From Chitinophagaceae bacterium (GTDB lineage Bacteria > Bacteroidota > Bacteroidia > Chitinophagales > Chitinophagaceae), in assembly GCA_019638615.1 (NCBI GenBank), contig JAHBTL010000016.1:62001-126000 (forward strand): a stretch of 64,000 bases of DNA, read 5' to 3'. Below the pieces are notes generated by a model. It did no database searches, was not told the DNA's origin, and was given only the letters and a program-made list of their open reading frames with translations. The stretch's first letter is position 1. Each line of letters starts with the position of its first letter. Position numbers and translations under genes: made by a program. This document shows, one piece after another, positions 4,851 through 24,187 of this stretch.

Positions 4851-5146
4851 CCCTCACCCCCGTCCCCTCTCCACGGAGTGGAGAGGGGTGCCCGGGCTCA
4901 TAGTATGTTGATGAAATGTAAGTGGGGAGGCTGAGGATGTAAAGTCGCGGGAAAATACAAAGCGTTAAGCCTGGATATATTCAGTGGATGATGTGGATGA
5001 TATAAAGTTTGGAGTTGTTCTACTGTACCGTCCTTCTCCTGGGAAGGAGAAGGATAAGAGGATGAGGCTTGATGTGGGAGATCAAAAAGTTTGACTTAAT
5101 GCTTAAGTACCGATTAAGAACCTTAAATAACTGTTGGCGGCTGAAA
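4846..5146. repeat. 302-bp spacer repeat, copy B
   Basis: This is the second copy of the spacer at 2091-2392. It begins at the stop codon of permease copy 2 and carries the same two hairpins; the first has arms at 4864-4874 and 4878-4888. After 5146 it runs into an intact heptamer leader, whereas copy A has a small palindrome there. The gap 4851-5191 holds no gene. Confidence 0.9.
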
Positions 5147-5191
5147 GCTGATTGCTGAGAGCTGAAAGCTGACAGCTCAAAACCAACAATT
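5139..5191 (+). repeat. Heptamer tract abutting the start codon of permease copy 3
   Basis: Seven consecutive 7-mers (GGCTGAA, AGCTGAT, TGCTGAG, AGCTGAA, AGCTGAC, AGCTCAA, AACCAAC) are followed by AATT and then the ATG at 5192. The period is exactly seven, and the tract is in the same register to the ATG as the tracts before copies 6, 8, 9 and 10. Confidence 0.88.
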
Positions 5192-7603
5192 ATGTTTAAA
5201 AACTATTTCAAAACCGCATGGCGAAATCTGAAAAGGAACAAACTGTTCTCTTTCATTAACATCCTGGGTCTTGCCATTGGCATAGCTACCTGCTTCCTTA
5301 TTATGTTGTATGTGCAGGACGAGCTGAGCTATGACCGTTTTAATAAGAATGCGGCTAATATTGCAAGAATAATTTTCCAGGCAGATATCAATGGCGGGAA
5401 AATAAATGAAAGTAATGTAATGGCGCCGGTGGCAGCTACACTAAAGAAGGACTTCCCTGAAGTAATAGATGCCACAAGGATTGTATCTTACGGATCGCTA
5501 AAGATCACCTATAATAATACGGTGTTTAAAGACGACCGGTTTGCATTTGTTGATCCTAACTTCTTCGATATTTTTACGTTGCCCATGATAGAGGGCAATA
5601 CCCGGTCTGCATTGCAGCAGCCCTACACGGCAGTCATTACAAGATCAACGGCGGAAAAATATTTTGGCAGGGAGGAAGCCCTGGGCAAAATGTTTATGCT
5701 GGGTAATGATACAGCGCTTTATAAAATAACCGGCGTTATGGAAGATATGCCTTCCAATTCGCACTTTCATTTTGACATGTTGGCATCCATGACAGGCTTG
5801 AAAAGCGCTGCTTCCGATTCGTGGATGACAGGTAATTATTACACGTACCTGTTGCTGAAACCAGGCGCCGATCTCAAAAAAATGCAAGCCCGCTTTCCGG
5901 ATATGGTGGACAAATATATGGGCCCGCAAATTCAAAGCCAGATGGGGCTGAGCCTGGAGCAATTCAGGACCAAAGGCAATACGCTCGGCTTTGCCTTGCA
6001 GCCTTTAACGTCTATTCATCTTTACTCCGCCGGTACCAACGAATTTGAACCGGGAGGCAATGCCGCTTATGTGTACATATTTGCAGGGGTTGCTATTTTT
6101 ATGCTGGTAGTTGCATGTATCAATTTTATCAATCTCTCTACCGCCGGTGCATCCAAAAGAGCAAAAGAAGTAGGCGTAAGAAAAGTAGCGGGCTCAGGGA
6201 AAATACAGCTTATCGGGCAGTTTTTATCGGAATCCTTATTGATCACTTTATTTGCTTTGCTTATTGCTTTTGTTCTGCTGCAGCTTGTGCTTCCTGCATT
6301 CAATGCTATTTCAGGTAAGCATCTTGGTATTACCGTAAAACCTGTTTTGTCATTCGTGGTATTGGGCCTGATCGTAGGGCTGCTGGCTGGTATCTACCCC
6401 GCTTTCTATTTATCTTCGTTTAAGCCTGTTGCCGTATTAAAAGGAAGACTTAATTCCACCCATAAAAGTTTCAGGTTGAGAAGCGCGCTGGTAGTATTCC
6501 AGTTCTTCATATCTGTTGCACTGATCATCGGTACTATAGTGGTATACCAACAGATGGAATTCATACAAAACAAAGATATAGGCTATGATAAAAACCAGCT
6601 CATTACTATTCCCAATTCATATGTTTTAGGCAGGAATGAGCAGGCATTTAAGCAGCAGATGCTGCAGAATCCCGGGATAGTGAATGCGACATCTTCATGG
6701 TATAAACCTGCCGGGCCAAGTAATCACAATAATTCGCTGGCTTATCCAAAAGGCAATGATAAAATAATAGTGAATGGTGTAGACTACCACATAGACGAAC
6801 AATATATCCCAACGATGGGCATGAAGATGTTTGCCGGCAGAAACTTTTCGGGGGAATTCAAAACAGATTCTTCTGCCATTATTCTCAATGAAACTGCTGC
6901 AAGAGCCCTGGGCTGGACTCCGGAATCGGCTCTTGATAAAACGGTGGTCATACAAAACAGCACTAAGGGCTCTCATTACCCGTTTCATGTGGTTGGCGTG
7001 GTAAAGAATTTTAACTTCAGATCGCTGCATGAAAGCATCAGCCCCCTGTATATGACATTTGAACCGCAGGGAGGATTGATCTTTAAAATAAATACTGCCG
7101 ATATTAAAGGAGTGTTGGCCGCCATGAAAAAGCAATGGGACAGCTACCATACCGAAGAGCCCTTTACTTATGCTTTTATGGATGACCTTTTCAATAAAGC
7201 CTATGCTGCAGAACAGAAAACTGCTACTGTGCTGAACATTTTTGCTGCGCTCACCATATTTGTGGCCTGCCTCGGTTTGTTCGGACTGGTAACATATACT
7301 GCGGAGCAGCGCACCAGGGAAATAGGGATCAGGAAAGTATTAGGTGCAAGCGTAATGCAGGTAACGCACATGCTATCCGGGGAATTCTTGAAACTGGTAT
7401 TGATCGCTTCGCTCATTGCATTTCCTGTAGCATGGTGGGGTATGAACAAATGGCTTCAAAGCTTTGCATACCGGGTTGATATTAGCTGGTGGGTATTTGC
7501 GGTGGCAGGCCTGGCGGCACTGCTGATTGCATTGATAACAGTGAGCTTCCGGGCAATAAAAGCAGCGGTGGCAAACCCGGTGAAGGCATTACGAAGCGAA
7601 TAG
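5192..7603 (+). CDS. FtsX/MacB-type ABC permease, copy 3
   Basis: The product is an 803-aa two-FtsX-block permease that starts MFKNYFKTAWRNL, the commonest N-terminus in the array. The first coupling motif is RAKEVGVRKVAGSG and the second RTREIGIRKVLGAS. After the second motif most copies read LLSKDF, but this one reads MLSGEF. Membrane helices fall near residues 18-41, 290-315, 348-370, 385-410, 430-452, 680-705, 735-755 and 765-790. The end ANPVKALRSE overlaps an inverted repeat that spans the stop codon (7586-7614). Transcription could continue from copy 2, but the repeat-filled spacer may carry its own signals. Cargo unknown. Confidence 0.93.
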   Translation: MFKNYFKTAWRNLKRNKLFSFINILGLAIGIATCFLIMLYVQDELSYDRFNKNAANIARIIFQADINGGKINESNVMAPVAATLKKDFPEVIDATRIVSYGSLKITYNNTVFKDDRFAFVDPNFFDIFTLPMIEGNTRSALQQPYTAVITRSTAEKYFGREEALGKMFMLGNDTALYKITGVMEDMPSNSHFHFDMLASMTGLKSAASDSWMTGNYYTYLLLKPGADLKKMQARFPDMVDKYMGPQIQSQMGLSLEQFRTKGNTLGFALQPLTSIHLYSAGTNEFEPGGNAAYVYIFAGVAIFMLVVACINFINLSTAGASKRAKEVGVRKVAGSGKIQLIGQFLSESLLITLFALLIAFVLLQLVLPAFNAISGKHLGITVKPVLSFVVLGLIVGLLAGIYPAFYLSSFKPVAVLKGRLNSTHKSFRLRSALVVFQFFISVALIIGTIVVYQQMEFIQNKDIGYDKNQLITIPNSYVLGRNEQAFKQQMLQNPGIVNATSSWYKPAGPSNHNNSLAYPKGNDKIIVNGVDYHIDEQYIPTMGMKMFAGRNFSGEFKTDSSAIILNETAARALGWTPESALDKTVVIQNSTKGSHYPFHVVGVVKNFNFRSLHESISPLYMTFEPQGGLIFKINTADIKGVLAAMKKQWDSYHTEEPFTYAFMDDLFNKAYAAEQKTATVLNIFAALTIFVACLGLFGLVTYTAEQRTREIGIRKVLGASVMQVTHMLSGEFLKLVLIASLIAFPVAWWGMNKWLQSFAYRVDISWWVFAVAGLAALLIALITVSFRAIKAAVANPVKALRSE

Positions 7604-7614
7604 CGGAGTAATGC
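7586..7614. repeat. Stop-codon-spanning inverted repeat
   Basis: Arms GCATTAC (7586-7592) and GTAATGC (7608-7614) pair perfectly around the TAG stop codon of copy 3, so the last codons of the gene are one arm of the palindrome. Equivalent structures end copies 6 and 9. A degraded second palindrome of the CCCGATGTATATCGGG type follows at 7620-7638. Confidence 0.8.
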
Positions 7615-7767
7615 GAAGACCCGGCATGTATATCGGGGTGAAGGCGTTGCGGGAAAGAGGAGTGCCCAAGTTCAATGGAGGTCGAGAGAGTGGGGAGTTT
7701 GTGAAAATGTGGAATGTGTGAATTGAGGAATGCTTTTATAACAGACTATAAACTAACAATAATCAAT

Positions 7768-10164
7768 ATGCGCAGAAGTTACTTCATGGTTGCCTGCAGA
7801 AATCTTATCCGTAACAGGAAATATTCGCTCATTAATATTACGGGGTTAGGTATTAGTATTGCGTCCTGCATATTGATAGGCCTGTTTGTGTTTAATGAAA
7901 TGAGCTTTGATAAACAGGTACCTGGTAAAGAAAATATCTACCGCCTTAACGAGTACATACATTATGATGGCACGGCGCCGCAGTTGTCGGCTGCTTCGGG
8001 GCCACCCATAGCTCCATTTCTCAAAGATAATTTTTCTGAAATTGAAGGTTTTACAAGGATATATCCGGTTAGTCCAAATGTATACCCTGCTGCAGGTTTG
8101 GAGTTTGAAGGAAAGAAAATAGCAACTGCAAACCTCGCTTGCACTGACACCTCTTTTGCCGGTATGTTCGGGGTAAAAATTATTGAAGGTATCAAAAAAG
8201 AGTTCCTGAAAACAAAAAACAGCATTGTACTCACCCAAAGCCTGGCAAATAAAATATTTGGTAATGCCCCGGCTTTAAATAAAACATTGTTGTTGCGAAC
8301 AAGCGATACAACCACGCTTTCTTTTAGCGTTGCGAATGTTATTGCCGATTTGCCTGAAACATTCCATATACAGGCAGATGCCTTGTTGCCCATCCCCGAA
8401 AAAATAGGGTATGGATATGAGGCAAATTTCGGAGTGATAATGGGTCCTTCATATGTACGCCTGCGACGGGATATAAATGCAGCTTCCCTGGCTTTAAAAC
8501 TTACCCAAACGCTTCATGAAAAAAATAAGTTTATAGATGTCAGGTTGCAAAAGCTATCCGATGTACACACGAAGTCGGTTGACATAACGAATGATATATA
8601 CAACTATAAAAAAATTGACGGTAAGTATATTAACATATTTCTCATAATCGGGTTGGCTGTTTTTACAATAGCCGGTATAAATTTTATTAATCTCACGATT
8701 GCCATTAATAGTTACAGGGGAAAGGAAATTGCCATGAGGAAAATAATTGGAGCAAAACGCCTGCATATTATTGCCCAGGTTATAACAGAAACCTTTTTCT
8801 CTGTTTTCCTTGCATTGGTTACAGCACTTATTTTAAGCATAATTTTTTTACCTTTTTTAAACAGTATATTAGACAGAAACCTTTCCCCGGCGATGTTATA
8901 TCAGCCGGTATTTATTGCAGTATATATTGTTGCAATATTATGTACAACAATCATGGCAGGAATGTACCCGGCCTGGTTAATCTCGTCATTACAGGCCAAC
9001 GAAGCGCTGAAAAATAAACTGCCCGGTGGTATTTCCAAACCCATATTGCGTAATGTGCTTGTTGCTGGTCAGTTTACCATAGCGATAGTTTTTGTTGTTA
9101 GCCTTTTAGTATTTGTTAAGCAAGTGCGGTATATGCAAAATAAAAATCTCGGCTATTCCTATGCTCAGGTTATAAAAATTCCTCTGGAAAACCAGGATGC
9201 TGAAAAGCTGCCGATTATTCGGGATGAGCTATTAAAATTAAAAGGAGTGGAAGATGTTACCAATGGCTATATGGAATTGGGTGGAGACGGCGGAATTTTT
9301 GGTATCGATTATAAAGCTCCTGACGGACAGGATAAACATGTATCTGTAAATTTTGAGAATGCCGGGAAAAACTATATTCCTTTCTTCAATATGAAGATGG
9401 CTGCCGGTCGAAATTTTACCAATAGCAGTAACGCCAATGAATACCTGATTAATGAAACCTTAGGAAAACAAATGGGTTATACAGACCCGGTAGGTAAACA
9501 AATTAATCTTTCAGGCGGTTGGGATAAGGGAATTGTTGTTGGTGTGGTGAAAGATTATAATTATAGTTCATTGCATAAGCCTGTTGAACCGTTAATAATC
9601 GGGTCAATGGATTTTATGACCGTGTGGCAAAAACAGTTATATGTAAAAGTAACAACCCAAAATATTTACCGAACATTAAAGGGCGTGGAAGCAACTTTTA
9701 AAAAAGTTACCGGTAATAGCGAAGTGGCATATGAATTTATGGATGAGCATTTTAAAGAAGTATATCGTTCAGAAAGACAGGCCAGCGTAATGATTGCAAT
9801 AATAGGCGGGCTTGCCATTATTATAGCATGCCTTGGTTTATTAAGCCTTGTAGCATTTGCAGTAATGCGCAGAACAAAAGAAATTGGCATACGGAAAGTG
9901 ATCGGAGCAACCGTAGTGGATATAGCTGTTATGCTGTCGAAAGATTTTTTGAAGCTGATATTGATTGCGATGGTAGTTGCTTTTCCTGTTGCATGGTGGG
10001 CAATGAATAGCTGGCTTCAGAATTTTGCATACAGAACATCTGTTGGCAGTGGAGAATTTATTATTGCCGGAGTCAGTATAATACTGATAGCGCTATTTGC
10101 TATCAGCTCCCAGGCAATAAAAGCGGCAGTGGCAAACCCGGTAAAGGCATTGAGGACGGAGTAG
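7768..10164 (+). CDS. FtsX/MacB-type ABC permease, copy 4
   Basis: I chose ATG 7768 (798 aa, MRRSYFMVACRNL) over the in-frame ATG 18 codons upstream because it aligns with the N-termini of the other copies. The overall layout is as in copy 2. The first coupling motif is the most divergent of the intact copies: RGKEIAMRKIIGAK, with A-M in place of the usual G-V/G-I. The second motif, RTKEIGIRKVIGA, is normal. The spacer before it lacks the heptamer tract. Cargo unknown. Confidence 0.92.
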   Translation: MRRSYFMVACRNLIRNRKYSLINITGLGISIASCILIGLFVFNEMSFDKQVPGKENIYRLNEYIHYDGTAPQLSAASGPPIAPFLKDNFSEIEGFTRIYPVSPNVYPAAGLEFEGKKIATANLACTDTSFAGMFGVKIIEGIKKEFLKTKNSIVLTQSLANKIFGNAPALNKTLLLRTSDTTTLSFSVANVIADLPETFHIQADALLPIPEKIGYGYEANFGVIMGPSYVRLRRDINAASLALKLTQTLHEKNKFIDVRLQKLSDVHTKSVDITNDIYNYKKIDGKYINIFLIIGLAVFTIAGINFINLTIAINSYRGKEIAMRKIIGAKRLHIIAQVITETFFSVFLALVTALILSIIFLPFLNSILDRNLSPAMLYQPVFIAVYIVAILCTTIMAGMYPAWLISSLQANEALKNKLPGGISKPILRNVLVAGQFTIAIVFVVSLLVFVKQVRYMQNKNLGYSYAQVIKIPLENQDAEKLPIIRDELLKLKGVEDVTNGYMELGGDGGIFGIDYKAPDGQDKHVSVNFENAGKNYIPFFNMKMAAGRNFTNSSNANEYLINETLGKQMGYTDPVGKQINLSGGWDKGIVVGVVKDYNYSSLHKPVEPLIIGSMDFMTVWQKQLYVKVTTQNIYRTLKGVEATFKKVTGNSEVAYEFMDEHFKEVYRSERQASVMIAIIGGLAIIIACLGLLSLVAFAVMRRTKEIGIRKVIGATVVDIAVMLSKDFLKLILIAMVVAFPVAWWAMNSWLQNFAYRTSVGSGEFIIAGVSIILIALFAISSQAIKAAVANPVKALRTE

Positions 10165-10236
10165 TTTAATTTGAAAATTCGTCAATTTGAAAATGTGAGA
10201 GAATACGGAAATGTGAGAATGTGAAAATATGGAAAC

Positions 10237-10375
10237 GCCTGCTGGATTTGTTCTGTAGATGATGTGGTAGATATAGTTTGGACTTATTCCGCAGCACCGT
10301 CCCTCTCCGCGAGCCAGCCTGTCGGCAGACAGGGAGAGGGATAAGAGCTTGCCTACCGGCAGGCAGGGGTGAGGC
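10237..10375. repeat. REP-like spacer repeat (GCCTGC-TGGATTTG...GAGGC family)
   Basis: This spacer element begins GCCTGCTGGATTTGTTCT and ends GGGTGAGGC. It contains an imperfect CCGTCC...GGGAGAGGG dyad and an extra palindrome, GCCTACCGGCAGGC. Related copies lie at 2218-2314, 4971-5068, 12911-13012, 13013-13115, 18448-18567 and 28025-28171. AATTTGAAAATGTG-like short repeats precede it at 10167-10235. Confidence 0.8.
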
Positions 10376-10415
10376 AAAAACATAAACTGAAAATCAGCAA
10401 CCATAAATTACAACT

Positions 10416-12845
10416 ATGTTCAAAAACTATTTTAAAGCCGCTTACCGGAATATTATCCGGCATAAGGCTTTTTCATCAATCAATATTACTGGTCTCACTT
10501 TAGGGCTAACGGCTTGTTTATTGATCGGGCTGTTTGTATGGGATGAAAAACAATATGATGCATTTCTTCCTGGTGGTGAGCAGGTATACCGTATTTACAC
10601 CGAGCATACCAATACAAATGGCATACAAAACATGGCCGCTACTCCTCCTGCATTTACTGTGACTCTTGAGCAACAGTATCCGGAAATAGAAAAAACTGCC
10701 AGGGTACTGTTGCGGCCTGAAAATAAAACGTTTTTTGAAAACGGAAAGAACAAGTTGTATGAAGAAAGCGGGCTCTTTGCGGATTCCACCTTCTTTGATA
10801 TATTCCCGATTGCTTTCAAATACGGTTCCCGCACAAATATACTTGCAGACCCCACATCAATAGTCTTATCAGATGAAATGGCGTATCGTTTGTTCGGGAA
10901 CGAAGATCCCGTAGGTAAGCAGGTATTGATGAACAAGGTTGCTTACCAGGTAAAAGGCGTATTTATAAAAAAACCGAAATTCCACCTGCAGTTTAATTAC
11001 ATGATCCCTCTTGCTGCTTTCACAAAATGGATACTTGCTGAGCGCATGCAAAGCTGGAGCTGGCACCAGTTTATTAGCTATGTGAAGCTGAAAAAAGATG
11101 TTAACCTGCCGCTCCTGGAATCTAAATTTCAGAAAGAAGTGCTGGAAAAGACAAGACCAAACAGTGATGATGATAGCTGGGACAAACCTTTTTTCCAGCC
11201 TTTGAAGGATATCCATTTGCACTCCTCGGATTTGAAATTTGATATAGCGCAGAGAGGAAATATTACGTATGTAAAAGGGCTTACAGTTATAGCAGTTTTT
11301 ATTTTATTAATAGCCTGTTTTAATTTTATTAATCTGGCTACTGCAAAATCGCTGCAACGTGCAAAAGAAGTAGGTATCCGTAAAACAGTTGGGGCAAGTA
11401 AAAAACAATTGATTGCACAGTTCACGGGTGAAACAATAACACTGGTGTTCATCAGTATTATTATTTCGGTGGGTCTTACTGTGCTTTTACTTCCCTTGAT
11501 GAATAGCTTCACAGGTAAGCATATTCCGGCAACACTTTTTACCAGCCCGGTCGTTCTTTCTTTATTGATCCTGTTGACATTGACCACAGGCATGCTTGCT
11601 GGTTTTTATCCCGCACTGGTATTATCCGGTTTTAGGCCGGTGAAAGTATTGAAAGCTTCGTCGGGAATCGAAAACAGGAGTGGTACGCGGCCGTGGTTGC
11701 GGAATAGTCTTGTAGTAGTGCAGTTTACTTTGTCGGCCTTACTAATCATTTGTGCTATTGTTGTATTTAAGCAGGTAAATTATCTCCATCACAAAAATCT
11801 TGGTTTTAATAAAGAACAAATATTGTTTTTTCCCCTGCGGGATGATAGTGTACGCAATAACAAAGACGTTTTTAAAAACGAATTGCTGAAAGTGCCGGGA
11901 ATTTCTTCTGTTTCGATCGGCTATGGCTTCCCGGGCGATGCAGTGGCAGGAGATGCAATTACTGTTGAACATAACGGCCGGCGGGTAACACAATCAGTGA
12001 CACAATTAGCGGTCGATTTCGATTATATCAGCACACTGGGTTTGCAGGTAATTGCAGGCAGGGATTTTTCAAAATCCATGTTAACCGATGAAGCCCATGC
12101 ATGGATAATTAATGAAACCGCGGTAAAGCAATTAGGTTTTGAAACGCCCGAAAAGGCACTTGGTAAAATGATGTACTGGCACCCGTGGGGTGCTGCCAAT
12201 CCAGATTCCCTTAAAGCGGGTCAGGTGATCGGCGTGGTAAAAGATTTTAACTATAAAAGCTTATACGATAAGATTGAGCCTGCTGTATTACAGATATTTC
12301 CCAACGTTGCATGGAAAGTAGCAGTAAAAATACAAACTACGGGCATTGACAACACTATTGCGAAGATCGAAAATGTATGGAATAGCTTTACACCAGGCTA
12401 TCCGTTGGAATATAAATTTCTTGACGACAACTTTAAGCAGATGTATTATTCGGAAGACAAGTTGAGAACGTTGCTCCTGTTATTCACATCCATTGCCATT
12501 TTTATAGGATGCCTTGGATTGTTCGGCCTGGCTGCTTATACTGCTGAACGCAGAAAAAAAGAAATAGGCATACGGAAAATATTAGGTGCTACAGTGCAGG
12601 GAGTTATACTGCTTTTGTCCAAAGACTTTATCAGGTTGATTTTGGTAGCATTGCTCATTGCTTCGCCCATTGCCTGGTATTTTATGAATAAATGGCTACA
12701 GGATTTTGCATACCGGATAGCTATTGAGTGGTGGATGTTTGCGTTAGCAGGTCTGCTGGCAATATTGATTGCCCTGGTAACCATCAGCTTCCAGTCAATA
12801 AAAGCAGCGATGGCAAACCCGGTAAAGAGCTTGAGAACGGAATAA
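10416..12845 (+). CDS. FtsX/MacB-type ABC permease, copy 5
   Basis: This 809-aa permease begins MFKNYFKAAYRNI and has the two-block layout of copy 2. The first coupling motif is RAKEVGIRKTVGASKKQL and the second is RRKKEIGIRKILGAT, followed by LLLSKDF. The first FtsX helix carries ACFNFINL. The C-terminus is ANPVKSLRTE. The leader is short (TTACAACT before ATG) and keeps only the AACT end of the heptamer leader seen elsewhere. Cargo unknown. Confidence 0.93.
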   Translation: MFKNYFKAAYRNIIRHKAFSSINITGLTLGLTACLLIGLFVWDEKQYDAFLPGGEQVYRIYTEHTNTNGIQNMAATPPAFTVTLEQQYPEIEKTARVLLRPENKTFFENGKNKLYEESGLFADSTFFDIFPIAFKYGSRTNILADPTSIVLSDEMAYRLFGNEDPVGKQVLMNKVAYQVKGVFIKKPKFHLQFNYMIPLAAFTKWILAERMQSWSWHQFISYVKLKKDVNLPLLESKFQKEVLEKTRPNSDDDSWDKPFFQPLKDIHLHSSDLKFDIAQRGNITYVKGLTVIAVFILLIACFNFINLATAKSLQRAKEVGIRKTVGASKKQLIAQFTGETITLVFISIIISVGLTVLLLPLMNSFTGKHIPATLFTSPVVLSLLILLTLTTGMLAGFYPALVLSGFRPVKVLKASSGIENRSGTRPWLRNSLVVVQFTLSALLIICAIVVFKQVNYLHHKNLGFNKEQILFFPLRDDSVRNNKDVFKNELLKVPGISSVSIGYGFPGDAVAGDAITVEHNGRRVTQSVTQLAVDFDYISTLGLQVIAGRDFSKSMLTDEAHAWIINETAVKQLGFETPEKALGKMMYWHPWGAANPDSLKAGQVIGVVKDFNYKSLYDKIEPAVLQIFPNVAWKVAVKIQTTGIDNTIAKIENVWNSFTPGYPLEYKFLDDNFKQMYYSEDKLRTLLLLFTSIAIFIGCLGLFGLAAYTAERRKKEIGIRKILGATVQGVILLLSKDFIRLILVALLIASPIAWYFMNKWLQDFAYRIAIEWWMFALAGLLAILIALVTISFQSIKAAMANPVKSLRTE

Positions 12846-12910: not shown

Positions 12911-13115
12911 GCCTGCCTGGATTTATTCTATAGGCGATGTGGTAGATATATAGTTTAGAATTGTTCTACTGTACCGTCCTTTTCCGCGAGGAGAAGGATA
13001 AGAGGATGAGGCTGCCTGCCTGGATTTGTTCTATAGGTAATGTGGTAGATATAAAGTTTGGAATTGTACTGCAGTACCGTCCTTCTCCGCGAGGAGAGGG
13101 ATAAGAGGGTGAGGC
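12911..13115. repeat. Tandem pair of REP-like spacer repeats
   Basis: Two copies of the GCCTGCCTGGATTT...GAGGC element lie head to tail (12911-13012 and 13013-13115). Each contains a dyad of the type CCTTCTCC-GCGA-GGAGAAGG. AATTTGAAAATGTG short repeats precede them (12850-12906) and a heptamer tract follows. The gap 12846-13213 (368 bp) consists almost wholly of repeats and holds no gene. Confidence 0.85.
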
Positions 13116-13146: not shown

Positions 13147-13213
13147 TGCTGATGGCTCAAAGCTGATAGCTGATAGCTGATAGCCGACAGCCGACAGCTC
13201 AAAGCTCACAACT
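13147..13213 (+). repeat. Heptamer tract abutting the start codon of permease copy 6
   Basis: Nine exact-length heptamers (TGCTGAT, GGCTCAA, AGCTGAT three times, AGCCGAC twice, AGCTCAA, AGCTCAC) are followed by AACT and the ATG at 13214. This is the cleanest tract in the window. Confidence 0.9.
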
Positions 13214-15586
13214 ATGATAAAGAACTATTTAAAAGTTGCTTTACGCAACCTGAAAAAAGGAAAGCTGTTTTCTTTTATAAATATAGCCGGTCTTTCCATC
13301 GGCATGGCCGTAACCCTGATCATCGGGTTGTGGGTATGGGATGAATTGTCGTTTGATAAATACCATAAAAATTATGATCACCTTGGACAGGTGTGGCAAT
13401 TTGTACAGTTTGATGCGGAAAAATCTTCTTTTAATTCAGTACCCATACCTATTGCAAAAGAATTGCGGAGTAAGTATCCCGCTGTGGAGGCTGCCTGTGT
13501 AACAACCTATAACCGGGAAGCAATACTTGGTATTGGTAATAAGAAAATCGTAAAGAGAGGGATGTATGCTGAGCCTGATTTTCCCGGGATGATGACCATA
13601 AGGATGCTGAAAGGAATAAGCGGCTTACATGATATGCATTCTGTATTACTGTCTGCATCAATGGCGAAAATACTTTTTGGCGCTGAGGACCCGCTAAATA
13701 AAATTGTCCGGCTGGATAACAGGGCTGATGTAAAAGTAACCGGCGTATATGAGGATTTTCCGGAGAACAGTTCTTTCAAAGATGTGTCTTTCTTAGCACC
13801 GTGGGAGCTGTTTACAAGCCTGGATGGTTATGCCAAACGCGCTTCTGCCGAATGGGATGAGAACTCGTTTCAGATATTTGTGCAGTTGAAAGAAGGGACT
13901 GACTTCGCTCAAATTTCATCGGCTATAAAAGATATGCGGATGAAACTGGAAAACCCTCCCGCATATAAGCCCGAATTTTTTGTACATCCCATGAGTAAAT
14001 GGCACCTGCATGGCAATTTTATAAATGGTGAAAACACCGGTGGACTGATCCGGTATGTAAAGCTGTTCGGCATAGCAGGCATCTTTGTATTGTTGCTGGG
14101 CTGCATCAATTTCATGAACCTTTCCACCGCACGTTCAGAAAAAAGAGCCAAAGAAGTAGGAATCCGCAAAACGATTGGTTCCGGAAGGAAGCAGTTGCTG
14201 CTCCAGTTTTTCAGCGAATCGGTATTGGTGTCGTTTATCGCTTTTATGCTTTGCCTCCTGCTTGTTCAACTGGCAATGCCGCTTTTCAACCAGGTAACAG
14301 ACAAAAAAATGGCCATTCCCTGGGGTAATATTTATTTCTGGTTGCCGGCTATAGCGTTCTGTTTAATTACGGGATTGATCGCCGGAAGTTATCCTGCCTT
14401 GTACCTTTCCTCTTTTAAACCTGTAAAAGTATTAAAGGGAACATTTAAGGCCGGACGGCTGGCATCTGTGCCGCGAAAAGCGTTGGTGGTTTTTCAATTT
14501 ACTGTTTCCATTACATTGATCATCGGAACAATGGTAGTATACCGTCAAATTCAATATGCCAGAGACCGTTCCGCCGGTTACAACAGCAACGGTCTTATTG
14601 AAGTAACAATGAGAACACCGGAAATAGGAAAAAATTATGAAGCATTGCGCACGGAGCTTTTGAGCGCCAGGTATGTAAAAAATATCTCCCGCTCTATGGG
14701 CTCGCTAACCGATGATTACGGAGGCACGACCGCTGTAAGCTGGAAAGGAAAAACACACGGCACGAGTCCTATGTTCATTGCCAATAAAGTAACTTATGAA
14801 TACGGGGAAACAGTTGGCTGGAATATATTGTCAGGGAGAGATTTTTCGCAAAGCTTTTCTACAGATACATCAGCTATTATCCTGAACCAGTCGGCTGTTC
14901 AGCTTATGGGGCTCAGGGAGCCATTGAATGAGCTGGTTAAGCTTGGCGGGAAAGACTTTCGTGTGATCGGCGTGGTGAGCGATATGATAAAATTCTCGCC
15001 CTTTGACCAGGTAAAGCCATCGCTTTTTACCGTATCTCCCGGCGCTACCAATGTAATAAACATACGGATGGCTGCACAGGTTCCCGTAAGCAGCGCATTG
15101 GCAAAAATTGAAACGGTATTTAAAAAATACAACCCGGCTGCTCCGTTCGAATTCAAATTTGTGGATGAAGCATATGCAGCCAAGTTTTCTGACGAAGTAA
15201 AGATCGGGAAGCTTGCCGGGTATTTTGCAGCGCTCGCCATTTTCATTTCCTGCCTGGGTCTTTTCGGATTAGCCTCATTTGTTGCAGCGCAGCGCACAAA
15301 AGAAATCGGCGTTCGCAAAGTGTTGGGTGCATCCGTATTCAGTGTGTGGAAATTGCTGTCAAAAGATTTTGTGCTGCTTGTTTTTATTTCACTGCTCATC
15401 GCATCTCCGGTTGCATATTATTTTATGCACGGCTGGCTGGAAAATTACCGTTATCGCATCAATATATCCTGGTGGTTTTTTATACTCGCTGGTGCCGGCG
15501 CTTTATTATTAACAGTAGTCATGGTAAGCTTCCAGGCAATAAAAGCGGCGGTGGCAAACCCGGTAGCAGCATTACGAAGCGAATAG
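13214..15586 (+). CDS. FtsX/MacB-type ABC permease, copy 6
   Basis: This 790-aa permease begins MIKNYLKVALRNL. Its motifs are RAKEVGIRKTIGSGRKQL and RTKEIGVRKVLGASVFSV. It is closer to copy 8 than to its neighbours: both have KTIGS, HKNYD in the first periplasmic domain, a region around residue 255 of the type MSxWHL, and PRKxLVVxQFTVS before the second periplasmic domain. This suggests a sub-lineage separated by copy 7. The end ANPVAALRSE lies in a stop-spanning palindrome. Cargo unknown. Confidence 0.93.
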   Translation: MIKNYLKVALRNLKKGKLFSFINIAGLSIGMAVTLIIGLWVWDELSFDKYHKNYDHLGQVWQFVQFDAEKSSFNSVPIPIAKELRSKYPAVEAACVTTYNREAILGIGNKKIVKRGMYAEPDFPGMMTIRMLKGISGLHDMHSVLLSASMAKILFGAEDPLNKIVRLDNRADVKVTGVYEDFPENSSFKDVSFLAPWELFTSLDGYAKRASAEWDENSFQIFVQLKEGTDFAQISSAIKDMRMKLENPPAYKPEFFVHPMSKWHLHGNFINGENTGGLIRYVKLFGIAGIFVLLLGCINFMNLSTARSEKRAKEVGIRKTIGSGRKQLLLQFFSESVLVSFIAFMLCLLLVQLAMPLFNQVTDKKMAIPWGNIYFWLPAIAFCLITGLIAGSYPALYLSSFKPVKVLKGTFKAGRLASVPRKALVVFQFTVSITLIIGTMVVYRQIQYARDRSAGYNSNGLIEVTMRTPEIGKNYEALRTELLSARYVKNISRSMGSLTDDYGGTTAVSWKGKTHGTSPMFIANKVTYEYGETVGWNILSGRDFSQSFSTDTSAIILNQSAVQLMGLREPLNELVKLGGKDFRVIGVVSDMIKFSPFDQVKPSLFTVSPGATNVINIRMAAQVPVSSALAKIETVFKKYNPAAPFEFKFVDEAYAAKFSDEVKIGKLAGYFAALAIFISCLGLFGLASFVAAQRTKEIGVRKVLGASVFSVWKLLSKDFVLLVFISLLIASPVAYYFMHGWLENYRYRINISWWFFILAGAGALLLTVVMVSFQAIKAAVANPVAALRSE

Positions 15587-18447: not shown

Positions 18448-18567
18448 GCCTGCCTGGATTTGTTCTATAGGTGATGTGGTAGATATACAGTTTGGAATTG
18501 TTCTATAGCACCGTCCCTCTCCATGAGGAGAGGGATAAGAGCTTGCCCGCCGTGGTTGGGGCGAGGC
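18448..18567. repeat. REP-like spacer repeat
   Basis: This is a member of the GCCTGCCTGGATTTGTTC...GAGGC family between copies 7 and 8. A separate C-rich dyad of the CCCTCACCCC/GAGGGG type lies just after the copy 7 stop codon (18320-18360, CCCCT-AAGGGA-AGGGG). The gap 18316-18630 holds no gene. Confidence 0.78.
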
Positions 18568-18591
18568 CGAAAATGTACAAATATTAATAAT

Positions 18592-18630
18592 TGCTGATAG
18601 CCGAAAGCTGACAGCTCAAAGCCCACAACT
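18592..18630 (+). repeat. Heptamer tract abutting the start codon of permease copy 8
   Basis: Five heptamers (TGCTGAT, AGCCGAA, AGCTGAC, AGCTCAA, AGCCCAC) are followed by AACT and ATG 18631. The tract lies directly before the N-terminally extended frame, not before the internal Met at 18877, which supports 18631 as the real start. Confidence 0.85.
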
Positions 18631-21282
18631 ATGAACAACGACAGGATATGGCTGTTAATGGCGAATAAGCTTTCGGGCGAAGCTTCGAAGCAAGAGCTGG
18701 AAGAATTGGAACAACTGCTGAGAGAACACCCGGAATTATCTTATCAATATGAAAGCATCTCAGATTTTTGGGACGGTAAAACAATAATGAATGAAGAAGC
18801 AGGTACAAAAACATTTCAAAAGATTTTAGATGCGATAAAAGCGCAACAGCAACACGAGTCTTTTAAAACAAATGTTATGTTCAAAAATTATTTCAAAACT
18901 GCATGGAGAAACCTTATCAAAAACAAGATATCTTCCTATATCAATATTGGCGGACTAGCCGTAGGTATGATGGTAGCAATGCTCATTGGTCTTTGGGTCT
19001 GGGATGAATTGTCATTCAACAAATACCACAAAAATTATGACCGCATTGCCCAGGTAATGAAGTATGCTAATTATGACGACGGACCGAATGTAAATAAGAA
19101 TCTTCCTTATCCATTGACGATAGAGCTTAAAGAAAAATACACCCGGCATTTTAAGCATGTCGTGACGGCAAGGCAACAGGAAGAGTTTGACCTCTCAGCC
19201 GGCGAAAAAAAAGTTGCAAAAACAGGACAGTTCATAGATGCCGGAGCACCTGAAATGCTCAGCCTGAAAATGTTAAAAGGCAGCCGGGCAGGCCTGGAGG
19301 AACTCCATTCTATTATTCTTTCCGCTTCAACTGCCAAAGCGCTTTTTGGTGATGCTGATCCTATGGGCAAACCCATGAAAATAAATAACAGGATAGATGT
19401 AAAAGTAACAGGCGTTTTCGAAGATCTGCCACTTAATTCACAATTCCACAGTGTACAATTTTTTTCGCCTTTTGATCTGGATGCAACTGCTAACAACTGG
19501 ATAAGAGAACAGAGCTGGGACAATCAATTTCTGTTAACCTATGTTGAAATAAATACAAACACCGATTTCGAAAGCGTTTCCGCATCGATAAAAGATGCCG
19601 AGATCAGCATCACCAAAAATCTTGAAAATTATGCAAGGCAGGCGAAACGAAAACCACAGTTGTTTCTGAACCCGATGAGCCAATGGCATTTGTATTCTGA
19701 ATTTAAAAACGGCCTTCGCGAAAATGGGCCGATCCGGTTTGTGAAGCTTATTGGCAGTATTGGCGGGTTTGTCTTGCTGCTGGCCTGTATCAATTTTATG
19801 AACCTGAGTACAGCACGTGCAGAAAAAAGAGCAAAGGAAGTTGGTATCCGCAAAACCATCGGTTCTGTACGCCTGCAACTGATCGGCCAGTTTTTTAGTG
19901 AATCATTGCTGGTTGCATTATTAGCGTTTATCCTGTCCGTTTTTTTAGTGGTCATTTCTTTGCCCGGGTTCAATGTCTTAGCCACAAAGCAGCTATCTGT
20001 ACCCTGGGCTACTCCCGGGTTTTGGTTATGCAGTCTCGGATTTATCCTGCTTACAGGTTTATTGGCGGGCAGTTACCCGGCATTGTATTTATCATCCTTC
20101 AGTCCGGTCAAGGTATTGAAAGGCACATTTCGCGCAGGGCGTTTTGCTGCTATTCCCCGGAAAATATTGGTCGTAATACAATTTACTGTTTCTACAACCC
20201 TGATCATTGCCACCATTATTGTGTACAGGCAGATCAGTTTTGCAAAAGACAGGCCGGTTGGTTATGCACGAGATGGTTTGCTAATGGTACAGAAGAAATC
20301 AGATGATTTTTATGGGAAGTTTGATTTATTCAACACCGAATTAAAAAATACCGGAGTAGTTACAGCAATAGCCGAAAGCGGTGGAAAAATTACTGGTGTG
20401 TGGCAGGGCAACAACGGTTTTGACTGGAAGGGCCGCGACCCGTCCTTTGATCCCCATTTCGGCACATTGGGCGTAACCTATGAGTATGGCCAAACCGTAG
20501 GCTGGCAATTTATTGCAGGCAGGGATTTTTCAAAAGAAATAGCAAGTGATTCAACAAGTTTTGTGATCAGCGAATCGGCAGCGAAATTAATGGGCATGGA
20601 AAATCCTGTAGGTGAATTTCTAAGATGGGAGACTCCCTGGAGAAAAGGTCGCACTTACAAAATCATAGGTGTTATAAAAGATATGGTAATGGATTCCCCG
20701 TTTGAACCTATCGTACCAACGATATTCCGTGTCGAAAGCTCTCTTCCGTGGATCAATATCCGGATCAATCCCGCTGTAAGCGCCGGTGAAGCGCTCCCGA
20801 AAATAGAGGCTGTTTTTAAAAGGCTTGTTCCTTCAGCGCCGTTCGATTACAAATTTGCGGATACAGAATATGCAGCCAAATTCGCTACCGAAGAAAGAAT
20901 AGGTAAATTATCAGGACTGTTTGCTATTCTTGCCATTTTTGTTTCCTGCCTGGGTCTATTCGGACTCGCCTCTTTCGTGGCTGAACAACGCATCAAAGAA
21001 ATTGGTGTAAGAAAGGTATTGGGAGCTTCTGTTTTCGACCTGTGGGGGTTGTTATCGAAAGATTTTGTAGTGCTGGTGATCATTTCATTACTGATCGCTG
21101 CGCCCATTGCCTATTACTTTATGTACAACTGGCTGCAGAATTACCCGTATCGTGCTAAAATGTCGTGGTGGATTTTTGGTGCAACGGGTCTGGTTTCCTT
21201 ATTAATCACATTGTGTACGGTAAGCTTTCAGGCAATAAAAGCGGCGATAGCAAACCCGGTCGGCGCATTGCGAACGGAATAG
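18631..21282 (+). CDS. FtsX/MacB-type ABC permease, copy 8, with anti-sigma-like N-terminal extension
   Basis: This 883-aa permease carries 82 residues ahead of the usual MFKNYFKTAWRNL start (residue 83, nt 18877). The extension has a Leu/Glu-rich helical character with LSGEASKQELEELEQLL, which resembles the N-terminal segment of Bacteroidota FecR-type anti-sigma factors. By topology it would lie in the cytoplasm before the first membrane helix. The heptamer leader in front of 18631 supports the extended start. The rest follows the copy 2 layout with motifs RAKEVGIRKTIGSVRLQL and RIKEIGVRKVLGASVFDL, and is closest to copy 6. Whether the extension binds a sigma factor or another partner is unknown. 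Confidence 0.92.
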   Translation: MNNDRIWLLMANKLSGEASKQELEELEQLLREHPELSYQYESISDFWDGKTIMNEEAGTKTFQKILDAIKAQQQHESFKTNVMFKNYFKTAWRNLIKNKISSYINIGGLAVGMMVAMLIGLWVWDELSFNKYHKNYDRIAQVMKYANYDDGPNVNKNLPYPLTIELKEKYTRHFKHVVTARQQEEFDLSAGEKKVAKTGQFIDAGAPEMLSLKMLKGSRAGLEELHSIILSASTAKALFGDADPMGKPMKINNRIDVKVTGVFEDLPLNSQFHSVQFFSPFDLDATANNWIREQSWDNQFLLTYVEINTNTDFESVSASIKDAEISITKNLENYARQAKRKPQLFLNPMSQWHLYSEFKNGLRENGPIRFVKLIGSIGGFVLLLACINFMNLSTARAEKRAKEVGIRKTIGSVRLQLIGQFFSESLLVALLAFILSVFLVVISLPGFNVLATKQLSVPWATPGFWLCSLGFILLTGLLAGSYPALYLSSFSPVKVLKGTFRAGRFAAIPRKILVVIQFTVSTTLIIATIIVYRQISFAKDRPVGYARDGLLMVQKKSDDFYGKFDLFNTELKNTGVVTAIAESGGKITGVWQGNNGFDWKGRDPSFDPHFGTLGVTYEYGQTVGWQFIAGRDFSKEIASDSTSFVISESAAKLMGMENPVGEFLRWETPWRKGRTYKIIGVIKDMVMDSPFEPIVPTIFRVESSLPWINIRINPAVSAGEALPKIEAVFKRLVPSAPFDYKFADTEYAAKFATEERIGKLSGLFAILAIFVSCLGLFGLASFVAEQRIKEIGVRKVLGASVFDLWGLLSKDFVVLVIISLLIAAPIAYYFMYNWLQNYPYRAKMSWWIFGATGLVSLLITLCTVSFQAIKAAIANPVGALRTE

Positions 21283-21330
21283 CCCTCACCTCCGACCCCT
21301 CTCCACGCAGTGAAGAGGGGTACCCAAACT
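21283..21330. repeat. REP-like hairpin abutting the stop codon of copy 8
   Basis: CCCTCACC follows the TAG directly, as after copies 1 and 2. The hairpin has arms CCCCTCTCCAC (21296-21306) and GTGAAGAGGGG (21310-21320) with one mismatch. The remainder of the gap has degenerate AATGTGGAAATGTG repeats and a partial REP-like element near 21443-21480. Confidence 0.8.
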
Positions 21331-21510
21331 CTTAACGGATTGAAAAATAGTAAGAGCGGCAATCCGGGAATTGAAAGAAGGTGATAATACAGAAAGTGTG
21401 TGAATGTGGAAATGTGTGAATTGAGAACACCATGTTCGGATATGTTGTAAGGAGAGGGAGAAGGAGGGTGAGGCTGATGTGGTAGAACCAAAGTTTGGAA
21501 TACTAATCAC

Positions 21511-21577
21511 TGCTGACGGTTGAAAGCTGAAAGCTGATTGCTGATAGCTCAAAGCCGACAGCTCAAAGCTCACAACT
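21511..21577 (+). repeat. Heptamer tract abutting the start codon of permease copy 9
   Basis: Nine heptamers (TGCTGAC, GGTTGAA, AGCTGAA, AGCTGAT, TGCTGAT, AGCTCAA, AGCCGAC, AGCTCAA, AGCTCAC) are followed by AACT and ATG 21578. The number and register match the tract before copy 6. Confidence 0.9.
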
Positions 21578-24007
21578 ATGTTTAAAAATCATTTCAAAAC
21601 AGCGGTAAGAAATTTTTTGAGACGGAAGGATTATTTTATGCTCAATATGATTGGTCTGTCCGTTGGCATTACATGCTGGCTGCTTATCCTGCAATATGTT
21701 TCTTATGAAAAAGGATATGATGCATTTCCCAAAGCTGACCGGATTGCACGGTTAACGCTTGACAACTACCAGCAGGGAAAGCTCGATTGGCAGTCGGCTG
21801 CCGTTTATCCTGCTTTTGGCCCCAACATGAAAAAAGATTTTCCCGAAGTGGAAAATTATTGCCGCCTGGCTGCAACCGAATTATTGTTATCGAATGATGA
21901 GCATAATATCAGGGCCAATGAAAGCAAAGGTTATTATGCAGACCCATCTTTTCTTTCCATGTTTGATATTCGTATGCTGAAAGGCAATCCGCAGACCGCA
22001 TTAGATGGATTAGATAAGATTATGCTGTCGGAAGATCTGGCAAAGAAATATTTCGGGGATGCAAACCCTCTGGGCAAAACACTTGTGTACCGCGCACCTT
22101 TTACTACAAAAATTTTTGAAGTCAGTGGCGTATTTACCCCGCCTTCGCATGCACATCTCGTTATCAATTACCTTATATCCTATCCCACAATAGGAAGCTT
22201 CAGACGGCAATTCGGCGACCTGAGCAGTCCCGAAGAAACCAGTTGGGGATGGTACCAGTTTTATACATACCTGTTAATGAAACCAGGAATAGATTTAAAA
22301 AAATTAGAAGAAAAGTTTCCCGCTTTCTGCGACCGTTACATCAATCATCTTGACTGGAAGAAGGCCGGAGGCATAAAAAACGAAGTGCATTTAATGCCCT
22401 TAAAAAATATACATCTTCATTCTCATTATATGCAGGAAGCGGAGATCAATGGCAATGAGCAATCCGTATCATTTTTATTCCTGGTCAGCTTTTTTATTAT
22501 AGGCATCGCATGGGTGAATTATGTCAATCTTTCTACTGCAAGATCGCTGGAACGTGCAAAAGAGGTCGGGGTAAGAAAAGTAGCAGGCGCTACGCGTTCT
22601 TCCCTGGTCGTACAGTTTCTTATTGAAGGCATTTTGCTTAACTTAATTGCTTTTGCTGTTGCATTATCCGTAGCGTCCTTTATTGCTCCCGGCTTCAGCA
22701 AATTAACAGGTAATATTTTGCCAACAACTTTTCGTCTGACAAACCAATACCGGGTGCTGGCAGGTGGTATTTTGCTCGCGGGAACGCTTCTTTCAGCCGT
22801 TTACCCGGCCTTTGTTTTATCAGCATTTAAGCCGGCTACTGTATTGAAAGGGTTGTTTAAAAACAGCGCGGGAGGCTTACTGTTGCGCAAAGCACTCATT
22901 GTTGTTCAGTTTACCGCTTCTATTGTACTGATTGCCGGAACCATCATTGTTTACAAGCAGCTAAGATATATGCGTTCACAACCATTGAACGTAAATATTA
23001 AGCAAACTGTGGTGCTTGAAGGAGCAGGTTCACCAAAAGATTCCGTTTACCAGCAGGCGTTTCAGCCGTTTAAAAACGCCGTGCTTCAGTTGCCGGGTGT
23101 TAAAAGCGTTACCGCATCTACAAGCGTTATGGGCAGGGAGAATTTTTGGGCAAACAATATTCCCCGCTCCGGAACTTCCAACTCTAATCCTGTTACACTT
23201 TATTACCTGGGTGTAGATTACGATTTTATTCCTTCTTATGAGATAAAGGTTGTAGCGGGCAGAAATTTTTCGAAGCACTTTCCTTCAGACAGCAATGCTG
23301 CATTGTTAAATGAAACCGCAGTGCGTATGTTAGGATTTAACGATCCAAAGCAAGTGATCAATCAGAAGATCGGGAGCGGGATCACGATTATTGGTGTAGT
23401 GCAGGATTACCATACAGAAGCGCTGCACAAAGCTATTGACCCGCAATTGATCATTTTACGTACAAATGCGCGTAATGTTTATTCCGTGAAAATAGAAACG
23501 GCTAATGTAGCCAATACCCTGGCAGATATCCGCACAAAATGGAATGCTAATTTTCCTGCAGACCCGTTCAGTTATTATTTTTTGGATGAGGCATTTGATA
23601 AGCAATATAAAGCGGATAAGCAGTTTGGTGCGGCCTTCGGGTTTTTTTCATGCATCGCGATCGTTATTGCATGCCTGGGCTTACTGGGATTATCAGCCTA
23701 CAGTGTTTTGCAGCGGGCGAAAGAAATAGGTATCCGCAAAGTATTTGGCGCTTCAACGGAGAATATAGTTCGACTGCTTTCAAAAGATTTTGTAAAGCTT
23801 GTGCTTATTGCTTTTATAATGGCTATACCTGTAGCATGGTGGGTAATGCAAAGCTGGTTACAGCAGTTTGCCTATCATATAAAAATAAGCTGGTTTGTAT
23901 TTGTAATTGCAGGCGCTACGGCATTGTTGATTGCATTGATAACAATAAGTTTTCAGGCAATAAGAGCGGCGGTAGCAAACCCGGTCGCAGCATTACGAAG
24001 CGAATAG
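21578..24007 (+). CDS. FtsX/MacB-type ABC permease, copy 9
   Basis: This 809-aa permease begins MFKNHFKTAVRNFLRRK. With copy 10 it forms a sub-group: the first FtsX helix reads AWVNYVNLSTA instead of the usual AC(I/F)NF(I/M)NL. Motifs are RAKEVGVRKVAGATRSSL and RAKEIGIRKVFGAS, followed by LLSKDF. The end ANPVAALRSE overlaps a stop-spanning palindrome. Layout as in copy 2; cargo unknown. Confidence 0.93.
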   Translation: MFKNHFKTAVRNFLRRKDYFMLNMIGLSVGITCWLLILQYVSYEKGYDAFPKADRIARLTLDNYQQGKLDWQSAAVYPAFGPNMKKDFPEVENYCRLAATELLLSNDEHNIRANESKGYYADPSFLSMFDIRMLKGNPQTALDGLDKIMLSEDLAKKYFGDANPLGKTLVYRAPFTTKIFEVSGVFTPPSHAHLVINYLISYPTIGSFRRQFGDLSSPEETSWGWYQFYTYLLMKPGIDLKKLEEKFPAFCDRYINHLDWKKAGGIKNEVHLMPLKNIHLHSHYMQEAEINGNEQSVSFLFLVSFFIIGIAWVNYVNLSTARSLERAKEVGVRKVAGATRSSLVVQFLIEGILLNLIAFAVALSVASFIAPGFSKLTGNILPTTFRLTNQYRVLAGGILLAGTLLSAVYPAFVLSAFKPATVLKGLFKNSAGGLLLRKALIVVQFTASIVLIAGTIIVYKQLRYMRSQPLNVNIKQTVVLEGAGSPKDSVYQQAFQPFKNAVLQLPGVKSVTASTSVMGRENFWANNIPRSGTSNSNPVTLYYLGVDYDFIPSYEIKVVAGRNFSKHFPSDSNAALLNETAVRMLGFNDPKQVINQKIGSGITIIGVVQDYHTEALHKAIDPQLIILRTNARNVYSVKIETANVANTLADIRTKWNANFPADPFSYYFLDEAFDKQYKADKQFGAAFGFFSCIAIVIACLGLLGLSAYSVLQRAKEIGIRKVFGASTENIVRLLSKDFVKLVLIAFIMAIPVAWWVMQSWLQQFAYHIKISWFVFVIAGATALLIALITISFQAIRAAVANPVAALRSE

Positions 24008-24041
24008 CGAAGTAATGCGGAGACTTCGATGCATATCGGAG
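23990..24041. repeat. Stop-spanning palindrome plus second hairpin
   Basis: Arms GCATTAC (23990-23996) and GTAATGC (24012-24018) pair perfectly around the copy 9 stop codon. A second dyad follows, CTTCGAT (24024-24030), GCAT loop, ATCGGAG (24035-24041), with one G-U pair. Confidence 0.82.
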
Positions 24042-24134
24042 TAAAGAGTTTGAGAACGGAACAATTTGAAAATATAAAAATAAAGGCGATCTAAGCATGA
24101 TAAAAAGTGTCAGACCAGAAATTAAGTAAATAAC

Positions 24135-24187
24135 CGCTGAAAGCTGATTGCAGACAATCCTAAGCCGACAGCTCAAAACTTACAATT
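24135..24187 (+). repeat. Heptamer tract abutting the start codon of permease copy 10
   Basis: Seven heptamers, more degenerate than in copies 6 and 9 (CGCTGAA, AGCTGAT, TGCAGAC, AATCCTA, AGCCGAC, AGCTCAA, AACTTAC), are followed by AATT and ATG 24188. Confidence 0.8.

What the first reader, a model, noticed from the sequence alone, without database searches (positions are those of the whole stretch)
5139..24187. Seven-base repeat tracts locked in register with start codons
Before copies 3, 6, 8, 9 and 10, and less cleanly copy 2, a tract of 5-9 units of the AGCTGAT/AGCCGAC/AGCTCAA type ends in one last heptamer plus AACT or AATT and then the ATG. Unit number varies while the phase to the ATG is fixed. 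The tract would form the entire 5' leader, in an organism group that lacks strong Shine-Dalgarno use, so slippage in the tract could change leader length by 7-nt steps.
Basis: seen in the sequence. Interest (0 to 1): 0.72.

Follow-up and report, generated by a model that had tools for sequence, protein, structure and literature searches.

The report
Copied repeat leaders before transporter genes
In one Bacteroidota bacterium, many copies of a transporter gene family carry the same kind of seven-letter repeats just before their start codon, most likely because the DNA between the genes is copied from one family member to another, while the number of repeats changes in steps of seven.

Summary
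In the window five ORFs (5192, 13214, 18631, 21578, 24188), and in damaged form a sixth (2442), follow tracts of AGCYSAH heptads whose strict units all start at 3 mod 7 to the ATG. They are MacB-type ABC-permease paralogues. A second cluster of the genome has the same leader in 7 of 7 paralogues. It is no general start signal: in a 1.66-Mb sample 38 of 39 arrays are intergenic, but outside this family 1 of 32 lies within 20 nt of a start. The shared register is best explained by copying. Spacers have been copied between paralogues; in one case, judged from orthologues in kept gene order, the spacer before ORF 5192 was replaced by a copy of the block also seen before ORF 2442. The tract also gains and loses units in register: 42 nt between 96% identical orthologues, 7 nt between two similar spacers; a blanket test of 7-nt steps was inconclusive. 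The ATG-proximal end often supplies the adenines (-3, -6, -12, -13) that favour initiation in Flavobacterium, and a 7-nt step would spare it. A regulatory effect of unit number is untested.

The parts
5140..5191 (+). heptad tract before ORF 5192 (52 nt from first GCTGA to ATG)
13148..13213 (+). heptad tract before ORF 13214 (66 nt, 7 strict units); 42 nt longer than in the orthologue G007.C1_411367
18593..18630 (+). heptad tract before ORF 18631 (38 nt), whose ATG opens an extra N-terminal segment of about 80 residues fused to the permease
21512..21577 (+). heptad tract before ORF 21578 (66 nt)
24136..24187 (+). heptad tract before ORF 24188 (52 nt, partly degenerate)
2386..2441 (+). damaged heptad tract before ORF 2442, interrupted by an inverted-repeat insert (2399-2416)
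2093..2441 (+). stretch from the stop codon of the preceding gene to the ATG of ORF 2442; one of two near-identical spacers
   Evidence: 327 identical positions with 4848-5191 (349 and 344 nt); its last ~125 nt are shared with the orthologue in G002
4848..5191 (+). stretch from the stop codon of ORF 2442 to the ATG of ORF 5192; inferred recipient of the copy
   Evidence: the orthologues in G002 (97.5%) and G008 (86.7%) have another leader
2274..2306 (+). inverted-repeat element of the family spacers (CCGTCCYTCTCC..GGAGARGGATAAGAG); others in the window at 5028-5060, 10297-10347, 13077-13107, 18511-18541
   Evidence: 7 exact pattern matches in the genome, all 7 next to MacB-type genes (with the gene places)
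12911..13115 (+). two direct copies of 103 nt carrying the inverted-repeat element, in the spacer before ORF 13214
5192..7603 (+). MacB_PCD/FtsX permease gene with in-phase leader
13214..15586 (+). MacB_PCD/FtsX permease gene with in-phase leader
18631..21282 (+). MacB_PCD/FtsX permease gene with extra N-terminal segment and in-phase leader
21578..24007 (+). MacB_PCD permease gene with in-phase leader
   Evidence: C8:83638-84318
24188..26686 (+). MacB_PCD/FtsX permease gene with in-phase leader

Best explanation
The tract is the 3' end of an intergenic spacer module (inverted-repeat element, heptad tract, A-containing tail, ATG) found with one family of tandem MacB-type ABC permease genes. Shown by comparison: near-identical spacers precede paralogues whose proteins are only 30-45% identical; the high-identity blocks end 16 to 49 nt inside the coding sequence, in the conserved start (such as MFKNYFKTAWRN); in one case gene order was kept while the leader changed. 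Shown in a few clean pairs: the tract differs by whole heptads, which keeps the register. Inferred: the copying is gene conversion or ectopic recombination guided by the conserved ends of neighbouring genes, so that a copied tract arrives already in register with its new ATG; unit changes come from slippage or unequal exchange; the ATG-proximal ~14 nt serve as an SD-less Bacteroidota initiation region, often with A at -3, -6, -12 and -13, which 7-nt steps do not touch. Unit number would then be mostly neutral to the initiation site, and the register a by-product rather than a code.
For: The 70-nt leader is closer to a same-genome paralogue than to any >=75% identical orthologue in 60 of 71 genes, 10 the other way, 1 tie; the stretch -200 to -80, above the tract, gives 62 of 71 against 8; coding nt 61-130 give 2 of 71. 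Spacers 2093-2441 and 4848-5191 share 327 positions while the two proteins are 32.6% identical. In G002 the orthologues of ORFs 2442 (97.8%) and 5192 (97.5%) are neighbours in the same order; the first has the same leader over ~125 nt, the second another leader, nearly that of the G008 orthologue (86.7%). Similar blocks: C87_5397/8106, 90.8% over 336 nt to +34, proteins 31.6%; G003 111855/114558, 88.6% over 228 nt to +49, proteins 44.0%; G003 101039/117066, 90.6% over 138 nt to +31, proteins 30.5%. Unit steps: 42 nt and 7 nt. Outside the family, 1 of 32 sampled arrays is near a start. 7 of 7 matches to the inverted-repeat element lie beside these genes. A at -12 and -13 in 30 of 30 in-phase leaders, at -6 in 27, at -3 in 21; all four in 20 of 30, against 14 of 122 other family leaders and 55 of 1049 genes (the 30 are partly copies of one another).
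Against: A blanket anchor test did not show 7-nt steps: 6 of 30 non-zero length differences are multiples of 7 when both leaders have units, 9 of 71 when neither has. With equal numbers of candidates a random same-genome paralogue's leader is about as similar as the orthologue's (16.8 against 17.0; 22.6 against 21.0 for -200 to -80), so the 60 and 62 of 71 partly reflect the larger number of paralogues; a repeat vocabulary shared across one genome could also raise these scores without copying. Between the two near-identical window spacers the tract and tail are the least similar part, so the tract itself is not shown to be the piece that was copied. The direction of that event rests on one case and on the last ~125 nt. 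ORF 2442 and its G002 orthologue are among the 10 genes whose leader follows the gene. The tracts fold slightly better than shuffles (z -0.77 to -1.95 in five). MacB-type leaders of other genera are also enriched in 7- or 8-nt repeats, which copying within one genome does not explain by itself.
Confidence: 0.7

Rival explanations
1. Contingency locus: slippage changes the leader by 7-nt steps and thereby sets the expression of each permease, giving variation between cells.
For: In-register unit changes between close orthologues and between similar spacers. The tract differs much more than its flank between two near-identical spacers. 7- and 8-nt repeats before MacB-type genes also in other genera: 18 and 17 of 105 leaders reach a match of 0.5, against 3 and 3 of 82 other leaders (fractions).
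Against: Units are degenerate rather than perfect copies, which should lower slippage rates (general knowledge). The ATG-proximal end stays the same whatever the unit number. No population data and no expression data were available.
Confidence: 0.12
2. Selected translational element: the heptads bind a regulator or ribosomal protein, as proposed for TAACTGA repeats, and selection keeps them in register before these genes.
For: 14 of 31 collected family genes of this genome have the in-phase tract, including 7 of 7 in C87:1-20000. In-phase leaders have A at -12 and -13 in 30 of 30.
Against: Close orthologues can use unrelated leaders; G005 has phases 2, 3 and 4; the same heptads lie in both orientations and mostly far from starts elsewhere.
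Confidence: 0.1
3. Plain intergenic heptad repeats of the long simple-sequence sort and no more: the genome scatters heptads between genes and some happen to abut starts.
For: Period-7 stretches of any unit are common between genes, most of all after stops: 90 of 703 stretches of 50 nt after stops and 28 of 771 before starts reach a lag-7 match of 0.5, against 0.003 in shuffles (fractions, MacB-type genes set apart).
Against: Sense orientation, fixed phase and closeness to the ATG in 14 family genes against 1 of 32 sampled arrays elsewhere.
Confidence: 0.08

Closest known systems
TAACTGA heptamer direct repeats of marine Beggiatoaceae, some Cyanobacteria and five Bacteroidetes (MacGregor 2015, PMC4679880; abstract, section list and sections 3, 7, 10, 23 read)
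   Same: [quoted passage not shown] indels mostly in 7-nt increments between two close Cyanothece strains.
   Different: Other unit (AGCYSAH, degenerate); here near starts in one gene family; similar spacers before paralogues; last unit starting at -11 or -18 rather than the set most often ending 1 nt upstream; the paper saw no pattern in the function of the genes behind the repeats.
Long simple sequence repeats with heptanucleotide units (as described in PMC4679880 section 3) and cyanobacterial STRR (recalled; listing only)
   Same: [quoted passage not shown]
   Different: Degenerate mixed units and a family-specific place.
Bacteroidota SD-less initiation region (Baez et al. 2019, PMC6847099; passages)
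   Same: Adenines at -3, -6, -12, -13 are positive determinants in F. johnsoniae; the in-phase leaders often carry them.
   Different: Repeats are not part of the passages seen.
Concerted evolution of paralogues by gene conversion (general knowledge; listings only)
   Same: Sequence more alike within a genome than between species.
   Different: Here the spacers are alike while the proteins stay about 30-55% identical to their nearest paralogue in most cases.

Membership tests
TAACTGA-type start-codon heptamer repeats | unit TAACTGA | tested here: not met
   units are AGCYSAH
TAACTGA-type start-codon heptamer repeats | most sets of the genome just upstream of start codons, forward orientation (as in BOGUAY) | tested here: not met
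   7 of 38 sampled intergenic arrays within 20 nt of a start, 6 of them in one gene family; 19 of 38 point to a stop
TAACTGA-type start-codon heptamer repeats | contiguous heptamer direct repeats between genes | tested here: met
   38 of 39 arrays intergenic; lag-7 excess between genes
phase-variable simple-sequence contingency locus | unit number differs between close relatives, in register | tested here: inconclusive
   clean pairs with 42 nt and 7 nt differences, but 6 of 30 non-zero differences overall are multiples of 7
phase-variable simple-sequence contingency locus | unit number varies within a population and changes expression | not testable with these tools
   one genome per species; no reads, no transcripts
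spacer homogenisation by gene conversion between tandem paralogues | spacer closer to a paralogue than to the orthologue, coding sequence the reverse | tested here: met
   60 of 71 (leader) and 62 of 71 (-200 to -80) against 2 of 71 for coding nt 61-130; weaker with equal candidate numbers
spacer homogenisation by gene conversion between tandem paralogues | non-reciprocal transfer with unchanged gene order | tested here: inconclusive
   one case fits: spacer before ORF 5192 differs from the orthologous one and nearly equals that before ORF 2442, with the two genes in the same order in G002
MacB_PCD/FtsX ABC permeases | MacB_PCD and FtsX domains above Pfam cut-offs | tested here: met
   4 of 4 window paralogues scanned

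The most novel reading that the evidence does not exclude
Large MacB-type permease arrays of Bacteroidota are a leader-shuffling system: recombination swaps spacer modules between paralogues and heptad or octad slippage tunes them, so that expression of dozens of related transporters is reassorted without touching their coding sequences.
Probability: 0.15. Interest if true: 0.8.

Novelty: new variant of a known kind. Interest (0 to 1): 0.5.

Why it matters
It suggests that a striking register between repeats and start codons can arise by copying of intergenic DNA rather than by a code in the register. It also offers a natural case in which the control regions of a bacterial gene family evolve in concert within a genome while the proteins diverge. 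If leaders set expression, such arrays would be a ready test of regulatory shuffling in SD-less bacteria.

Tried and rejected
Consensus as a genome-wide start signal: rejected. A lag-7 excess confined to starts: rejected, it is stronger after stops. Unstructured leader as the reason for the tract: not supported; five tract leaders gave z -1.95 to -0.77, three other leaders of the window 0.20, 1.26 and 1.89. Proof of 7-nt steps with upstream anchors: inconclusive. Of 185 leader pairs with an anchor within 110 nt of both ATGs, only the 33 with units in both and the 75 with units in neither were counted; the other 77 were left out. Identity of the extra N-terminal segment of ORF 18631: no Pfam family above cut-off. 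Paper searches on heptad repeats near starts or between genes, MacB paralogue arrays and spacer homogenisation: apart from PMC4679880 I saw nothing on this case in the listings shown, which are capped and cover open-licence papers only. Promoters and transcript ends were not tested; the promoter scan was not run, as its description says that other promoter types are not covered.

Limits. The gene calls of the 1.664-Mb sample (23% of the genome) are my own coding-score calls, 1050 genes, probably missing some short ones. The pattern search of the whole genome listed only the first places of 192 matches, so positions were judged in the sample. MacB-type genes were collected from stretches around matches, as ORFs of about 630 codons or more, 152 in eight genomes, 31 of them in this one; starts were set by a motif rule, else the first ATG. 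One leader with under 100 nt of upstream DNA was left out, and the leader of ORF 18631 was taken at its own ATG. In one search, 68 of the 78 loci were used; (L198 and L225, of this genus, left out).
Full report
What is there. The window is C8:62001-126000 of a 7.18-Mb, 87-contig genome. Roughly the first 28,000 bases hold a tandem series of MacB_PCD/FtsX permease genes. The genome has 61 MacB_PCD matches, up to two per gene, many in clusters on C8, C87, C54 and C66.

Heptads of the form AGCYSAH stand before ORFs 5192, 13214, 18631, 21578 and 24188 with every strict unit at 3 mod 7 to the ATG, and in damaged form before 2442. The window has 16 double-unit matches against 0.12 expected. The five tracts are 38, 52, 52, 66 and 66 nt from first GCTGA to ATG.

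It is not a general start-codon signal. The genome has 93 + 99 double-unit matches against 3 + 1 for the reversed pattern, so the unit is a real genome-wide repeat. In a 1.664-Mb sample with my own gene calls, 38 of 39 arrays are intergenic; 19 point to a start and 19 to a stop. Seven end within 20 nt of a start, six of them before MacB-type genes on C8; the seventh (C14:92902) has another phase, read from its printed sequence. Outside these six that is 1 of 32. Period 7 of any unit is in excess between genes, and more so after stops (90 of 703 stretches) than before starts (28 of 771); MacB-type leaders of the sample reach 6 of 14, shuffles 0.000 to 0.004 (means).

Within the family it is common. 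In C87:1-20000, 7 of 7 paralogues have the tract at the same phase. With 7 on C8, 14 of 31 collected family genes of this genome do; two more have a nearby unit at another phase. Among leaders with a unit within 40 nt of the ATG, phase 3 holds for 8 of 8 in G002, 2 of 2 in G003 and 1 of 1 in G007, but 2 of 5 in G004 and 6 of 11 in G005. Many paralogues in the same clusters have other leaders, for example AAATCTCAA-ATG in G008 and AAAACAAAACCTG-ATG in G007.

Leaders mostly do not follow their genes. Of 71 genes with a >=75% identical orthologue, 60 have a leader closer to a same-genome paralogue, 10 closer to an orthologue, 1 tie. For the stretch -200 to -80, above the tract, it is 62 and 8. 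For coding nt 61-130 it is 2 of 71. Candidate numbers are unequal: against equally many random paralogues the mean score is 16.8, against 17.0 for the orthologue, so the orthologous leader is about as close as a random paralogous one; the best paralogue scores 30.0 against 23.8 for the best of equally many non-orthologues elsewhere, and wins in 53 of 71. The stretch -200 to -80 can reach into the preceding gene where spacers are short.

One copying event can be given a direction. The spacer before ORF 5192 (4848-5191) shares 327 positions with that before ORF 2442 (2093-2441), from stop codon to ATG, while the proteins are 32.6% identical. In G002 the orthologues are neighbours in the same order; that of ORF 2442 (97.8%) has the same leader over about 125 nt, that of ORF 5192 (97.5%) has AAATATCAAATTACAA-ATG, much like the 86.7% orthologue in G008. 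So the block was most likely copied into place before ORF 5192. Above those 125 nt the two window spacers agree with each other but not with G002, so the full donor is open. The tract and tail are the least similar part of the two spacers. Similar high-identity blocks in C87 and in G003 end at +31, +34 and +49, inside the conserved N-terminal codons; longer blocks at about 65-75% identity also occur and run further into the genes. An inverted-repeat element of these spacers has 7 exact matches in the genome, 7 of 7 beside MacB-type genes, and the spacer before ORF 13214 holds a 103-nt direct duplication.

Unit number can change in register. ORF 13214 and its 96.3% orthologue in G007 differ by 42 nt between a shared flank and the ATG. 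The C87_5397 and C87_8106 spacers differ by 7 nt there. Between the two near-identical window spacers the flank differs at 3 places and the rest lies in the tract and tail. A blanket test over leader pairs with a shared upstream anchor did not separate tract leaders (6 of 30 non-zero differences are multiples of 7) from leaders without units (9 of 71), so this part rests on the clean pairs.

What the end of the tract may do. Baez et al. 2019 (PMC6847099, passages) found adenines at -3, -6, -12 and -13 to favour initiation in F. johnsoniae. In 30 in-phase leaders of the genus, A stands at -12 and -13 in 30, at -6 in 27 and at -3 in 21; all four in 20 of 30, against 14 of 122 other leaders of the family and 55 of 1049 predicted genes. 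The 30 are partly copies of one another. A 7-nt step leaves this end as it was, which argues against a large effect of unit number on the initiation site itself. This step is inference.

A wider pattern. In 76 loci of other genera from named records, MacB-type leaders show more 7- and 8-nt periodicity than other leaders of the same loci: fractions 0.171 and 0.162 of 105 against 0.037 and 0.037 of 82 reach a match of 0.5. Several Mucilaginibacter leaders show 8-nt units, and a Dyadobacter leader (L244) has GCCGACA/GCTGAAA heptads close to its ATG. Copying within one genome does not explain why the family attracts such repeats; this is the open part.

Comparison with what is known. The nearest relative in kind that I found is the TAACTGA repeat of Beggiatoaceae (PMC4679880). 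It sits in a similar place but is another unit, with a preference for starts over its genome that this one lacks.

Noticed in passing
window 26894-27921: A further MacB-type copy looks broken: an N-terminal ORF (26894-27226) and a C-terminal ORF (to 27921), much shorter together than the other copies; its leader is of the ATCTTAAATTTCAA-ATG sort.
   Followed up: partly
window 18631-18876: ORF 18631 begins with about 80 residues before the usual MFKNYFKTAWRN start; no Pfam family above cut-off. The in-phase tract precedes this new start, not the permease start.
   Followed up: partly
window 28196-28290 and 60080-60212: Other heptad arrays: GCTGATA followed by AACCATAAACCTCA units, and CAATTGA, CATTGTC and ACTTACT units.
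   Followed up: no
window 2399-2416; G000:C87:10954-10974; leaders in G002, G003, G006: An inverted-repeat insert of the CCGCCACGGCGGACAAGT sort, about 18 nt, sits inside several tracts and shifts the phase of the part above it. In this genome 3 places match within 2 mismatches: two in tracts, one on C9 not examined.
   Followed up: partly
L207-L273, upstream of the match: Several Mucilaginibacter MacB-type leaders show 8-nt repeats of the AATGAACY sort close to the ATG.
   Followed up: partly
G000, downstream of stop codons: Period-7 stretches are most frequent within 50 nt after stop codons (90 of 703 stretches).
   Followed up: no
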